Assembly (NCBI GenBank): GCA_001600615.1
Contig: BCKK01000005.1
Coordinates: forward strand, 1,761,559-1,825,558
From: Dioszegia crocea
Lineage: Eukaryota > Basidiomycota > Tremellomycetes > Tremellales > Bulleribasidiaceae
Length of the DNA: 64,000 bases
Direction of reading: 5' to 3'
A program made the position numbers and the translations under genes. This document shows positions 1 through 10,191 of this stretch, one piece after another. The notes under the pieces are model-generated. The model was not told the origin of the DNA. It ran no database searches and worked only from the letters and a program-made list of their open reading frames with translations. Position 1 is the stretch's first letter. Each line of letters begins with the position of its first letter.

Positions 1-1923
1 TTACCACAATCATCACTCCCCAGTCCTGATATCCTGCCCTGGTCCAATCCACCTGGGCAATCACACGCCCAAACACCTACATCGACATCATCAACCCATA
101 CACCCATCCTATCCGCTACTTCTCATATGGCCCCCGTGGTATTCCCAACCCATGTCTGTCATTGGTCCAACTGTCACCTGACATTCTCGTCAATGCCCGA
201 TTTACTAGGACACGTTGCAGCCGATCATCTAGGTGCGCCCGGTTTTGGACCTTCAAACCCCCTCCCACCCCAAAGTCCAGCTTTATTTCTTCCTCATTCC
301 AACACCCATCCCTCGACTTCTCATTCTCACTCCCGATCCCATTCGACCCAAAGACAGATCACACTCCAACCTTCAACTCAGGCGCACCATCAACTCCAAT
401 CCCTATCCTCCCTCTCTTCATCTTCCTCAGGCTCAGCCTCTGATCTCATCCGACACTTCAACACCCCCTTCCCACCTTCATCCTCCTCCACACCCAACTC
501 ATCTTCAGGCATCGGGACTGGCGGCGTAATCCCCTCACTATCAGCACTAGGTTTCAACACCTCTCCAAATTCTCAAGCAGAACAAGACCGTCTTTTGTCT
601 TGTCTATGGGACGATTGTTTCCCCCTTCCTACCGAATGTTCCGCAGACGAGCCAGATCAATGTCCTCCACACACGCATATCCCCGCTCCGGCAGATTGTA
701 CCGTCTCTCACCCGCACTCCCATACCCACACACACCGAAATACCTCAGGCGAGCCATTTAGCCCACAGACGATGTTGAGGCATGTACTGGAGGAGCACTT
801 GGGTGTACCGAGTGATATTTTAGGTTGGGATAGTCGGGATGCTGAGTTTGGGCTAGAGGCTCTGGCGGCTGGTTTGGCTGTTGGTCGGTCTGATGGAGGA
901 GTTGGGAAAGGGGCAGGTCTTGGTGTGGGTGACTTACAACTCCCACCTCCGACACTCGAAACGGAATCTCGTCGACATAGCGGTACACCCCTTCTCTCTC
1001 CACCTTCCGCGCCTTCACCCCCATCACCCAAACCACTCATATGTCACTGGCACAACTGTTGTCACGGTGAACCATTCACCAACCCATCAGAATTGATGGA
1101 TCACCTCTCGGAAACTCACGTGGGTCGGGGGAAGGACTCGTACTCGTGCCTATGGGGAGATTGTGCTTGTTCGGCCGAGGTGGAGGTCGAGGTGGATGAA
1201 GACGATGCGAGTGGGAGCGGAGTCAGCATGGGAGAAGGGAGTGGAGGCGGAAGCGGGGACATGAAGAATCATGGTCCTGTCCAAGGTCGACTATTCCGAT
1301 CTCGACAAAAAGTCCTACGGCACCTTCAAAGTCATACAGGTTACAGACCATTCATATGTCATGTCTGTCAACAGGCATTTAGTGAGGCTGCGCCACTTGC
1401 TGCGCATATCAGAAGACATAATGAGGAGAAACCGTTCTGTTGTGAGGTTGAGGGATGTGGGAAAAGGTTTGCGATTAGTTCAAGTTTGACTATTCATATG
1501 GTGAGTTTTGACCGTCTCTCTTCCTCTCCCATTCTACCCAATCTTTTCCAATCCTCTCACTTTGCCCGTCATTACTACACCATTCAGCCACCCATACTCC
1601 TTCGTTGATTCATCCCTAAGTACAGACCCCAGCTAACCCCCCAGCGCACACACAACGGCGACAAACCCTTCGTTTGCCCACACTGTCAAAAAGGTTTTGT
1701 AGAAGCTTCAAACCTCACCAAGCATATCCGAACACATACTGGCGAACGACCATTCGCGTGTCTCCATCCGGGATGTGGGAAACGGTTTCCAAGGCCTGAT
1801 CAGCTTAAGCGACATGTGGCGATACATGATAAAGAGCGGGAGAGGGTCAAGGCTGGTGGTGCTGGAGGAGGGGGAGGGGGGAAAGTGGGGGCAGGGAAGA
1901 CTAGGGGGAAGGGGAAAGTGTAG
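1..1923 (+). CDS. C2H2 zinc-finger transcription factor, Zap1/ZafA-like (5' end outside window)
   Basis: The reading frame is open from base 1 with no stop before the ATG at 127, so the gene probably starts upstream of the window. Exon 1 (1-1500) is joined to exon 2 (1645-1923) by a 144-nt intron; the join falls inside a finger linker and keeps frame. The N-terminal half is Pro/Ser/His-rich and carries atypical fingers of the C-x-W-x2-C type (near 157, 600, 1042 and 1147). The C-terminal half has four consecutive classical fingers with TGERP-type linkers, ending in the RPDQLKRH finger, then a Gly/Lys-rich tail. C-x-W-x2-C fingers followed by a terminal finger array are typical of the zinc-responsive activators Zap1/ZafA, but Gli/Zic-type factors share the CxWxxC feature. 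The family call is an inference; DNA binding in the nucleus is secure. Confidence 0.8.
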
Positions 1924-6340: not shown

Positions 6341-6885
6341 TCACAAAGGCTTAACTCCAGACTCATCGTTCTCAACAGGATAAGTATCGCTTTCCACCTC
6401 CCCAGTCTGCCTCTTCTCCTCCTGTGCGCTCCCTGCAATTGCGGCCTTGGCGACGGTGTTCATGTCTTCGGGTAGGAAAGGCTTGACGCCTGATCCATCG
6501 TTGGATACGGGGTAGATGTCGGTCTCGGGGTTGGTGGCTTGGCGTTTGGCAAGAAGACTGGAGTGGGTCAGCACGTGTGCGATAGAGGAGAGGTGAGAGC
6601 AGGTATCACATAGGAAAGGAGGAGAGGAGTAGGAGAGGGAACACAGGGAAGGGGAGGAATCAAACTTACGCCTCTTCAAATGCCCTCCGATCCTCCTCAA
6701 AGAAGAAATCGATACCTCCTTGCCTAAAAGTAAAGTCAGCTTAGGTATATGAGGCAGACAAAAGCAGAGAAAGAATGGACATACCCGTTGGACCGCACAG
6801 CGATGTTACTAGGGATCTCGCCGTGCTCGTAGGCCATACCGAGAGTGGCGAGGACGAGCGAAAAGAGGATGTTAGAGAGCTGCAT
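6341..6885 (-). CDS. Secreted Kex2-processed repeat peptide precursor (123 aa)
   Basis: Three exons (6785-6885, 6670-6723, 6341-6557) sum to exactly 124 codons. The protein starts with a signal peptide (MQLSNILFSLVLATLGMAYE). After an acidic stretch, LLAKR precedes a 22-residue block, QATNPETDIYPV... ending SGVKPF. A 22-residue spacer ending in EEKR follows, then a second 22-residue block, QTGEVESDTYPV... ending SGVKPL at the C-terminus. Both blocks begin with Gln directly after KR and share the pattern DxYPVxNDxSGVKP. This is the architecture of fungal Kex2-processed repeat proteins such as pheromone, repellent and quorum-type precursors. Kex2 cleavage and export of the peptides is inferred. 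No similarity to a named peptide is claimed. Confidence 0.85.
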
Positions 6886-7294: not shown

Positions 7295-10191
7295 CTAAGC
7301 TGCCGGAGCTCGCTTTCGCTTGCCTGAGACGATCTTTTTGCCCTTCTTCTGTACTTCGTCCCATGCTTTAGCAGTGGGTGCGCCTAGCAATGTTTCATGT
7401 CCTATGCAATTAGCAATAATTCCCCCTCGCAATTTCTGGTGCGAGATGAAACATACCTGATGCTCTGACTAAATCGTCGATGATGACTTTACTCCCTGAC
7501 GTAGGATACTTGGCCGATACACCCCTCGCCATCAATGGTTCCTTCAATAGATGCTTCAACTCCGCTTTTAATGATGAAACATTCTCGACTCGATTTCCTC
7601 GCCTTTTATGCTGAGGCTTAATGTGCGGTCGGTCAAATGTCAATTCTCCATCATTGAGCCTAGATTATCAGCTTGCTCCTCTTCATCTGGATATGTGAGA
7701 CCAGCCGAACTCACATATCATCATCCAGATCAATATCCATAGCTTCCGCAGCCTCCTTGAGCCAATTCCGATCATGCGCCTCCTTCTTCACCTCATGTTG
7801 CGCCTTTTCGATGGCCTGGGCGACTTGAAGCCTCTTCTTGAGTTTGGGTAAGAATCCACTTTCGATAGGTAGCTCGGGCAATTCAAGAGCTGGACAAGTG
7901 AGCTTTAATCCCAGCATAGGCATATACATGGTAGTGGAAACTCACCTCGACCCAAACTCCTCAATAGACTCTTTTGCATCCCCCTTTCCTCAGCACTGAC
8001 AATCTGCAGCGCAAACCCTGGGTTCTGGGCACGGGCCGTACGTCCACTCCGATGAATATAGGCATCGGCCGTTCGGGGTAAATTGAAGTGGACAACATGG
8101 TCGACATTGGGTATATCGAGTCCTCGCGAGGCGACGTCGGTAGCTATAAGGACCGCAGACTTAGACTCTTTGAAACTACTGAATCAGCATAGTCACCTGA
8201 GATCCAGAAGCGACAGACAGCTTACCGATCCAAATTCTTGAGACGCTGTTTCTGCTGCAATTGCGAGTGCAAAGGGTAGACGGGCATCTGCAGCATTTCG
8301 AATAAAGGTACAAGTCGGCGAATACCGTCGATACTGCCTGTGAAGACCATAGTTCGGCCGGGATATCGGAGGAGGAAGTAGTAGAGGTATAAATCCTACC
8401 AAGTCAGCTATCGCGCCGTCGCTACAGAATAGCCCTCATAGCTTACTTTATCTGTCACGACACACTCCACCATACTTTCTCTCAGGGACGCAACTACTCC
8501 TCCATCCGGACTTAAATCGATCACTTCGGGATTGGCGTCTCTGAAATCTAGGCGATCGACTAGGTCCTCTACGAATCATAAGCTGAGTCCAGCACGAACT
8601 TGTAGCTTTACACGGCACGCCAACTCACCCAAAGCTGAAGCCCGTTTCGTCCCATTCTTGGGCTTCCGCTGCTTCCTCTTCAAGTTCTGCTGCAAGTCTT
8701 TCGACAGTGTGGCGGAGAAGACGAAAGTCTGCATGTCGGCACGGGGTTGCGTTTCCGGTGCTGCGCTAGCGGCAGCAGCAAAGACTGGGTCCTCGTCGTC
8801 AGGTCCAGCAGTCACACTGTTGATATCAGCACGGGAAGCTTTTGTCAAGGCGCAGGATAACTTACGCTCCCTGTCTCTGCGTCAGACGGACAATACTCTC
8901 CAATTCGGCGAAATGACCATTCTCAATCATTCGATCCGCCTCATCGATAACCAGGAATCTCAGAGTCCGGACTCCTGCGGCCAGCTCCTCATCCTACGTT
9001 ATGTCAGACTCGGCCCTAGCGGAAATAAGGAGTGCAGCAACTTACCGATTTGATCAGATCCCACAATCGTCCAGGCGTAGCCACCAGGATATCTGCTCCG
9101 CGCTCTATGATCCTTTTCTGCTTATAAGCGCTCAGACCACCGATGACACTTCCGATGCTAATCCGTGGTGGCTTCTTTTGCTTCTTATTTGCCGCCTGCT
9201 CCTCTTCGCCAACAAGGTGGTTGACGACTTTTTGGAGATGGTCCATCACTTGCAGAGCCAGCTCTCGGGTGGGACAGACAATAAGGGCGGAAAGAGGACG
9301 ACGGGACGATTTGGAAGGTGCTGGAGATCGAAGAAGGTGTGAGAGGATAGGTAAGGAGTAGGCTAGGGTTTTACCGGATCCCTGATGTTTGGTCAGCTTG
9401 TCACAGAGAAACATGTACGGCTCATAGCTCACAGTCTCCGCTACACCAACGACATCTCGGCCTGTCAGACCTGCAGGCAGAGCTCGGCCTTGAATACCTG
9501 TCGGCTTGACGAAACCGAGAGCGAGCAAAGAGCGTTTGATACTGGGATGCAGCGAGATGTCGGACCAATCAGGCAGAAGAGCATCTGGGACAGTCAGCCT
9601 TTGCACTTACCTCCCTAGAGCGTCAGAAAGTAGGCTTACCGTCAAATGGCTCCGCGGCTTCTGTATCCTCTTCATCCTCCTCGTCCAGATCCTCTTTCTC
9701 CATCTTGCTGAACTCGGGCAGATCCGTTTCTTCATCGGCGACCTCATCCTCTTCTTCCGCTTCTCCGGCTTCTTCAACACTCTCTATCTCTTCCACAGGC
9801 TCCACAGCCTTACCCTTGCCTTTCACCTTCTTTCCCTCCGCAGCCTGTGATGTCAGTTTCTGACGAGCTATTCATCGACAAGCAGCACGGAACTCACCAC
9901 AAAGCGAGCGACCTTCATTCCGCCCTCCGCCGTCTCCCACTCAATCCCCACATCATCCAACTCCTCCAGCATCATCATCCCTCCTCCATCATCAAAACCT
10001 GCTAGTGATCCCGGATCGAGCTTCTTCCATTGAAGCGAGTCCGCCGTCAGACGCTCTCTCTTGGCCTTAGGCACAGCTGCGGTCGACGACGATTTTGACG
10101 ATGAAGTCCTGGGTCTTTTGCTTAATTTTCTTGACTTGGAAGAAGAAGAAGCGTTGTTGGCTTGCGCCAGACTTGAGAGACTGCCCCTCAT
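7295..10191 (-). CDS. MAK5: DEAD-box ATP-dependent RNA helicase Mak5 (DDX24 family), 60S ribosome biogenesis
   Basis: This is a multi-exon DEAD-box helicase. Its N-terminus has the Mak5-type block [16 protein letters not shown] and a long acidic region. The Q-motif region (GFVKPTGIQ), P-loop AETGSGKT (split by an intron near 9380), [23 protein letters not shown] and SAT follow in order. Motif [10 protein letters not shown], lies near 8050-8070. The C-terminus is basic ([15 protein letters not shown]). In yeast Mak5 acts in the nucleolus in maturation of the large ribosomal subunit. The start at 10191 ([10 protein letters not shown]) is chosen because upstream in-frame sequence is not family-like; an in-frame Met at 10311 is an alternative. 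All helicase motifs are intact. It shares a short divergent promoter with SYF2. Confidence 0.93.

What the first reader, a model, noticed from the sequence alone, without database searches (positions are those of the whole stretch)
6341..6885. Candidate new secreted peptide system: KR-flanked repeats in a 123-aa precursor
A signal peptide is followed by two 22-residue blocks, each starting with Gln immediately after a KR dipeptide and sharing DxYPVxNDxSGVKP. They are separated by a 22-residue spacer that itself ends in EEKR. The spacing and the shared sequence after each KR are hard to explain except by Kex2 release of related peptides; cyclisation of the N-terminal Gln to pyroglutamate is possible. 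Such precursors include fungal pheromones, repellents and quorum-type peptides. The identity of the peptide is unknown.
Basis: partly seen in the sequence, partly recalled or inferred. Interest (0 to 1): 0.8.

Follow-up and report, generated by a model that had tools for sequence, protein, structure and literature searches.

The report
Conserved secreted yeast peptide precursor family
A small fungal gene encodes a precursor that is probably cut up in the secretory pathway to release short peptides, and relatives with the same peptide core and nearly always the same cutting sites occur in Dioszegia, Kwoniella and a Cryptococcus species, so it looks like an undescribed family of secreted peptides whose role is still to be found.

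Summary
A three-exon minus-strand gene (6885-6341) encodes 123 aa with two copies of DxYPVxNDxSGVKP, each starting with Gln after KR. One correction: block 1 has no KR at its own end, so Kex2 and Kex1 would give a 42-mer and a 22-mer.

Three iterated searches of 5.8 billion proteins found 14 relatives, 11 non-redundant: Dioszegia hungarica, seven Kwoniella, Cryptococcus sp. DSM 104549 and two unnamed fragments. With the window that is 20 core copies, one to three per precursor. All 20 start with Gln after Arg, 18 after a dibasic pair. The core is conserved, the stretch after it is not. Five of ten full-length precursors have one copy, giving 25-26 residues.

The genome shows one copy and a Kex2-type P domain. 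Two published surveys required three repeats, so would miss one- and two-copy forms.

Best reading: a new Tremellales family of Kex2-processed, probably pyroglutamylated secreted peptides, most likely a signal. Processing is inferred; function is untested.

The parts
6785..6885 (-). Exon 1: signal peptide (by eye, residues 1-18) and start of the conserved N-terminal segment
   Evidence: aligns with relatives
6724..6784 (-). Intron 1 (61 nt, GTATGT...TTTTAG)
   Evidence: the two K. bestiolae models P0011 and P0013 differ by an insertion at about the same place
6670..6723 (-). Exon 2 (54 nt): rest of the N-terminal segment (GGIDFFFEED), dibasic RR, start of the bridge
   Evidence: K. heveanensis model P0007 lacks 17 residues at about the equivalent place
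6558..6669 (-). Intron 2 (112 nt, GTAAGT...CTCCAG)
   Evidence: translated intron differs from P0001 at 4 of 36 positions, exon 3 at 0 of 72
6341..6557 (-). Exon 3: end of bridge with LAKR, core copy 1, linker ending EEKR, core copy 2, stop
6690..6831 (-). Conserved N-terminal segment, residues 19-45 (crosses intron 1), followed by RR at 6689-6684; candidate second Kex2 product
   Evidence: coordinates: a dibasic site follows the segment in 10 of 10 full-length precursors; 23 of 29 identical to D. hungarica over residues 19-47
6416..6541 (-). Predicted peptide 1 after Kex2 and Kex1: 42 residues, QATNPETDIYPVSNDGSGVKPF + linker
6344..6409 (-). Predicted peptide 2: 22 residues, QTGEVESDTYPVENDESGVKPL, at the C-terminus

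Best explanation
A secreted prepropeptide of a Tremellales family for which I found no description. Step 1 (inferred from sequence): the signal peptide sends it to the secretory pathway. Step 2 (inferred; supported by conservation): Kex2 cuts after the RR or KR that follows the N-terminal segment and after the KR/RR in front of each core copy, and Kex1 trims the basic residues. Step 3 (inferred): the exposed N-terminal Gln cyclises to pyroglutamate, protecting the peptide. Products are acidic, Cys-free peptides with core [PV]E[ST]DxYPVSNDGSG[VL]K[AP]F: 25-26 residues in single-copy precursors, 42 and 22 in the window. Step 4 (inference from the strict core conservation, weaker): the peptide is an extracellular signal recognised by its sequence, acting on the producer or its kin; the N-terminal segment serves as folding/sorting propeptide or as a second peptide. 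I put steps 1-2 at about 0.85, step 3 at about 0.7, step 4 (signal) at about 0.45.
For: 20 of 20 core copies in 12 non-redundant precursors begin with Gln directly after Arg, 18 of 20 after a dibasic pair; the 77 Arg of these proteins include 20 followed by Gln, and these are the 20 core starts. Mean pairwise identity over 10 full-length precursors: core 0.76, N-terminal segment 0.68, signal peptide 0.41, stretch after copy 1 0.34. Between that Gln and the core lie 1 to 21 residues, yet the Arg and Gln stay. Ten of ten full-length precursors have a dibasic site after the N-terminal segment. The genome encodes a proprotein-convertase P domain and a DPPIV_N match, the STE13 type of domain. Pyroglutamyl peptides released from KEPs were measured in C. 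cinerea (PMC9769878, sections 6-7). The eight predicted peptides examined are acidic and Cys-free.
Against: No transcript or peptide data. Two of 20 copies (P0005 copy 1, P0014 copy 2) have a single Arg, a poorer Kex2 site. C-terminal ends of the released peptides differ (KPL, KAL, KP, KAFxGAGxx, or a long linker), so the mature end is uncertain. In the window and D. hungarica the dibasic site after the N-terminal segment sits nearer the segment than in Kwoniella, with an alignment gap of eight columns, so its homology is approximate. No receptor is known; the PF05096 type of glutaminyl cyclase was not found although its controls rang (the M28 type was not searched). The iterated profile search selects for similarity to its seeds, so part of the invariance is a selection effect. 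Cryptococcus sp. DSM 104549 has a degenerate second half of the core (SSEGGKVTAF), and no C. neoformans or C. gattii protein is among the 14 hits.
Confidence: 0.7

Rival explanations
1. The peptides are structural or surface components of the cell wall or capsule surface, in the manner of Ustilago Rep1 repellents, not signals.
For: Kex2-processed Rep1 peptides control hyphal wall properties in a basidiomycete (PMC6339444, passages).
Against: Eight predicted products are hydrophilic and acidic (GRAVY -0.21 to -1.08, charge -1 to -7, no Cys), and five of ten full-length precursors carry a single copy, a poor design for bulk material.
Confidence: 0.15
2. The N-terminal segment is the main active part (for example a second peptide or an inhibitor/chaperone), and the core peptides are secondary.
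For: Its conservation nearly equals that of the core (0.68 against 0.76); a dibasic site after it in 10 of 10; predicted strand-strand-helix, though at low confidence.
Against: The core is the part that is duplicated, and it is somewhat more conserved. Model pLDDT 55.6 gives no fold to interpret.
Confidence: 0.15
3. Effector or mimic aimed at a plant, insect or microbial neighbour rather than at kin.
For: Dioszegia live on leaves (recalled; PMC4720289, a paper on plant hub taxa, names Dioszegia 49 times, listing only). Pro-domain processing of plant-pathogen effectors by convertases of this type is the subject of PMC8528282 (title and start of abstract).
Against: Same core in Kwoniella and a Cryptococcus, which share no single host (recalled); strong conservation rather than diversification.
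Confidence: 0.1
4. Precursor of a cyclic ustiloxin-like RiPP, cyclised through the invariant Tyr by UstY-type (DUF3328) enzymes.
For: Kex2 sites and invariant Tyr in 20 of 20 copies.
Against: No UstYa match in the genome, but no control rang either, so this is uninformative; no DUF3328 match among 15 neighbouring ORF pieces tested. The conserved core is longer than known cyclic cores (recalled).
Confidence: 0.05

Closest known systems
Kex2-processed repeat proteins (KEPs) of Le Marquer 2019 and Umemura 2020
   Same: Signal peptide, dibasic sites before similar peptides, short secreted precursor.
   Different: Both surveys demand at least three repeats; of the 12 precursors here, 11 show one or two copies and only the fragment P0004 shows three. 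Kwoniella is not named in either main text and Dioszegia not in that of PMC6339444; Dioszegia was not searched for in the other. Supplements were not read.
Coprinopsis cinerea KEP 497993 (pyro-QIPAELPTKSINGNIEPY and pyro-QVPVDEPA)
   Same: Basidiomycete, conserved across genera, Kex2-type release, N-terminal Gln found as pyroglutamate (PMC9769878, sections 6-7).
   Different: Core sequence is unrelated by eye; not compared by profile. Agaricomycetes.
Ascomycete alpha-factor precursors
   Same: Signal peptide, pro-region, one to several peptide copies after KR.
   Different: No MF_alpha Pfam match; no regular STE13 XA/XP spacer (2 of 20 copies start QA); core unrelated by eye.
Cryptococcus neoformans Qsp1
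   Same: Secreted peptide from a propeptide in Tremellales.
   Different: Matured outside the cell by the protease Pqp1 and imported by Opt1 (PMC7537855, passages); its sequence looks unrelated by eye, not compared by a tool.
Ustilago maydis Rep1 repellent precursor
   Same: Basidiomycete Kex2-processed precursor without STE13 signature (PMC6339444, passages).
   Different: 37-residue peptides attached to hyphae and surface-active (PMC6339444, passages and a reference title); here acidic hydrophilic peptides.

Membership tests
KEP (strict survey definition) | Secretory signal peptide | tested here: inconclusive
   Hydrophobic N-terminus in window and relatives by eye; no predictor run
KEP (strict survey definition) | Three or more similar repeats between Kex2 sites | tested here: not met
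   Window has two; of 12 precursors only the fragment P0004 has three; criterion
Kex2-processed secreted peptide precursors (broad kind) | Conserved dibasic site directly before each conserved peptide | tested here: met
   18 of 20 dibasic, 20 of 20 Arg-Gln; window 2 of 2
Kex2-processed secreted peptide precursors (broad kind) | Kex2 encoded in the genome | tested here: met
   P_proprotein domain over the Pfam cut-off, in two pieces of one place on the same contig; the catalytic domain was not searched
Kex2-processed secreted peptide precursors (broad kind) | Released peptide detected | not testable with these tools
   needs mass spectrometry
Ascomycete alpha-factor | MF_alpha domain | tested here: not met
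   0 Pfam families for the window protein; only sub-cut-off, unrelated matches for six relatives
Ascomycete alpha-factor | STE13 XA/XP spacer after KR | tested here: not met
   first dipeptide is XA in 2 of 20 copies, XP in 0 (listing)
Ascomycete alpha-factor | STE2 receptor in genome | tested here: inconclusive
   no match, but no control rang
Ustiloxin-type RiPP | UstYa (DUF3328) gene nearby | tested here: inconclusive
   genome search silent with silent control; none among 15 neighbouring ORF pieces
Rep1-type repellent | Hydrophobic, surface-active repeats | tested here: not met
   GRAVY -0.21 to -1.08 for the eight peptides computed; surface activity not testable
Qsp1 quorum peptide | Sequence match to Qsp1; Pqp1 maturation and Opt1 import | not tested
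   compared by eye only; Pqp1 and Opt1 dependence not testable here (PMC7537855 passages)

The most novel reading that the evidence does not exclude
A peptide hormone system shared across Tremellales: one precursor releases two different conserved secreted peptides, a 27-33-residue N-terminal peptide and one to three pyroglutamylated copies of the ESDxYPVSNDGSGxKAF peptide, sensed by a dedicated receptor not yet known in Basidiomycota, where mating is held to use only a-type pheromones.
Probability: 0.25. Interest if true: 0.85.

Novelty: new member of a known kind. Interest (0 to 1): 0.6.

Why it matters
Few secreted peptide signals of basidiomycete yeasts are known (recalled), and Tremellomycetes score low in the largest survey: 1.00 KEP per strain against 5.30 for Basidiomycota, with all 46 basidiomycete strains without a KEP in this class (PMC7329392, abstract and passages). 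This family suggests one reason: the surveys needed three repeats, while here one or two suffice and conservation across species reveals the peptide. It gives a short, synthesizable molecule with a predicted start and modification, seen once in this genome, so its function is directly testable. Kwoniella is in the same family as Cryptococcus, and one Cryptococcus species carries a member.

Tried and rejected
Chance repeat: rejected, 0 of 200,000 shuffles and conserved in relatives. Unspliced 154-aa ORF (6341-6805): rejected, relatives align over the spliced exons and the translated intron diverges. Paralogues in the genome: none seen; searches with the window protein and with P0003 found only this gene, though that tool scores only its best candidates. 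A degenerate core pattern hit 5 places, two of them this gene; the other three have stop codons close by and no KRQ, and the reversed-pattern control gave 3. PDB: the single sequence gave two weak ribosomal-protein hits (E 0.15 and 0.16), the profile none. NCBIfam: two unconvincing matches, one member each, E 0.13 and 0.2. AlphaFold model: mean pLDDT 55.6, pTM 0.16, not interpreted; no fold search run. Glutaminyl cyclase: PF05096 silent although three controls rang; M28 type not searched. UstYa and STE2 searches are uninformative because no control rang. Literature: core strings in 0 papers; Kwoniella with Kex2 in 0 papers; a mixed search that asked for three of five terms gave 0. The organism of the window was not identified; Tremellales, with D. 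hungarica as nearest named relative, is inferred from P0002.

In one search the D. hungarica copy 1 was typed with one inserted Ser left out so that it fits 18 columns; the segment 'KRQ' gave no value there, and the 'stretch after copy 1' also takes in tails of single-copy precursors. From the 14 hits I left out P0001 (near-identical to the window), P0007 and P0013 (second models of the same species) before the counts, and also P0004 and P0014 (no N-terminus).

Full report
Observation. The minus strand of 6341-6885 carries a gene with three exons (6885-6785, 6723-6670, 6557-6341) that splice to 372 nt and 123 aa. Both introns have GT and AG ends and a CTGAC site 14 and 12 nt before the acceptor. 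Exon 3 holds LAKR-QATNPETDIYPVSNDGSGVKPF, a 22-residue linker ending EEKR, and QTGEVESDTYPVENDESGVKPL at the very C-terminus. The two blocks agree at 13 of 22 positions; 0 of 200,000 shuffles reached that.

Relatives. A plain search found two proteins: P0001, an ORF on an unnamed 1298-nt contig identical over the 72 exon-3 residues, and P0002 of Dioszegia hungarica (139 aa, 51% identity). A profile of window plus P0002 added P0003 (Kwoniella sp. CBS 6097) and P0004. A profile of four sequences raised the total to 14 proteins: Kwoniella sp. CBS 6097, sp. CBS 9459, heveanensis (two entries), pini, mangroviensis, dejecticola, bestiolae (two entries), Cryptococcus sp. DSM 104549, D. hungarica and three unnamed entries on short contigs, probably metagenomic. 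Kwoniella and Cryptococcus are Cryptococcaceae, Dioszegia Bulleribasidiaceae, all Tremellales.

The core. Twelve non-redundant precursors (window and 11 relatives) hold 20 copies: one copy in K. pini, K. mangroviensis, K. dejecticola, K. bestiolae and Cryptococcus sp.; two in the window, D. hungarica, both unnamed Kwoniella, K. heveanensis and P0014; three in P0004 (P0014 and P0004 are fragments). Every copy starts with Gln after Arg, 18 of 20 after a dibasic pair; the exceptions are P0005 copy 1 (ERQ) and P0014 copy 2 (SRQ). Of 77 Arg residues in these proteins 20 are followed by Gln, and these are the 20 core starts. Within the core D4, Y6 and V8 are invariant, P7, D11 and G14 are kept in 19 of 20, E2 and N10 in 18 of 20. 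In K. heveanensis copy 1 is bounded by KR on both sides and is 26 residues, the same length as the C-terminal peptide of three of the four single-copy Kwoniella precursors (the fourth has 25); this is the best guide to the mature form there. In the window the same logic gives 42 and 22 residues.

The N-terminal segment. In 10 of 10 full-length precursors a dibasic site follows a conserved segment of 27 to 33 residues, such as LQPGDVPLNVAVRSVNGEIKHFYEKDEIEYYKQ in Kwoniella sp. CBS 6097 and YEHGEIPSNIAVRSNGQGGIDFFFEED in the window, and a short bridge then leads to the RQ of copy 1. The site lies nearer the segment in the window and D. hungarica than in Kwoniella, so its homology is approximate. 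Mean pairwise identity is 0.68 in the segment, 0.76 in the core, 0.41 in the signal peptide and 0.34 in the stretch after copy 1. The segment spans the intron 1 junction. Paired entries suggest that the exon layout is shared: one K. bestiolae model has an insertion at about the place of intron 1, and one K. heveanensis model (another strain) lacks 17 residues at about the place of exon 2. A structure prediction had no confidence.

Processing. The genome has a P_proprotein domain over the Pfam cut-off, as expected for Kex2, and a DPPIV_N match. A pyroglutamate end is plausible: many KEP peptides confirmed in Coprinopsis are pyroglutamated and no unmodified species could be confirmed there (PMC9769878, section 7). 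The PF05096 cyclase was not seen.

What is known. Two surveys defined Kex2-processed repeat proteins: one of 250 fungal secretomes (PMC6339444; abstract, passages and sections 10 and 24 seen) and one of 1461 assemblies (PMC7329392; abstract passage and other passages seen). Both demand three or more repeats, so one- and two-copy members could not be listed; the latter gives Tremellomycetes 1.00 KEP per strain. Searches of the held papers for core strings and for Kwoniella with Kex2 found nothing; supplementary tables were not open to me. The window gene does not meet the strict KEP definition, nor the tested marks of alpha-factor or Rep1; Qsp1 was compared by eye only.

Reading. The best-supported account is a prepropeptide family releasing acidic, pyroglutamyl peptides by Kex2. 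The strict conservation of the core against a free stretch after it argues for sequence-specific recognition, and the single-copy form is that of a peptide hormone rather than bulk material; hence a signal is my first choice, at about 0.45. Structural use, an active N-terminal segment, an effector role and a cyclic RiPP are weaker. No step beyond sequence conservation has been shown.

Surroundings. The gene lies between a DEAD-box helicase (piece at 9016-9606, minus) and a small Cys-containing secreted-looking protein (5698-5000, minus). Of 15 neighbouring ORF pieces scanned, five matched Pfam families: a DEAD helicase, SYF2, glutathione synthase (two pieces) and a C2H2 zinc-finger protein; nothing there suggests a biosynthetic cluster.

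Noticed in passing
window 5698-5000, minus strand: Next gene downstream, four putative exons, 154 aa, secreted-looking N-terminus, several Cys and a C-terminal tail rich in dibasic sites (FRRS, LKRG, KKGRR); no Pfam match.
   Followed up: partly
window 6831-6690, minus strand (precursor residues 19-45): N-terminal segment nearly as conserved as the core and followed by its own dibasic site in 10 of 10 full-length precursors; possibly a second secreted peptide.
   Followed up: partly
P0012, Cryptococcus sp. DSM 104549 (no window coordinates): Single-copy member with the second half of the core degenerate (SSEGGKVTAF) and an extra KR-bounded stretch before the core; might be a changing or decaying peptide near the Cryptococcus lineage.
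   Followed up: no
window 1-1608, plus strand: Open frame of 535 aa with C2H2 zinc-finger matches, one over the Pfam cut-off.
   Followed up: no
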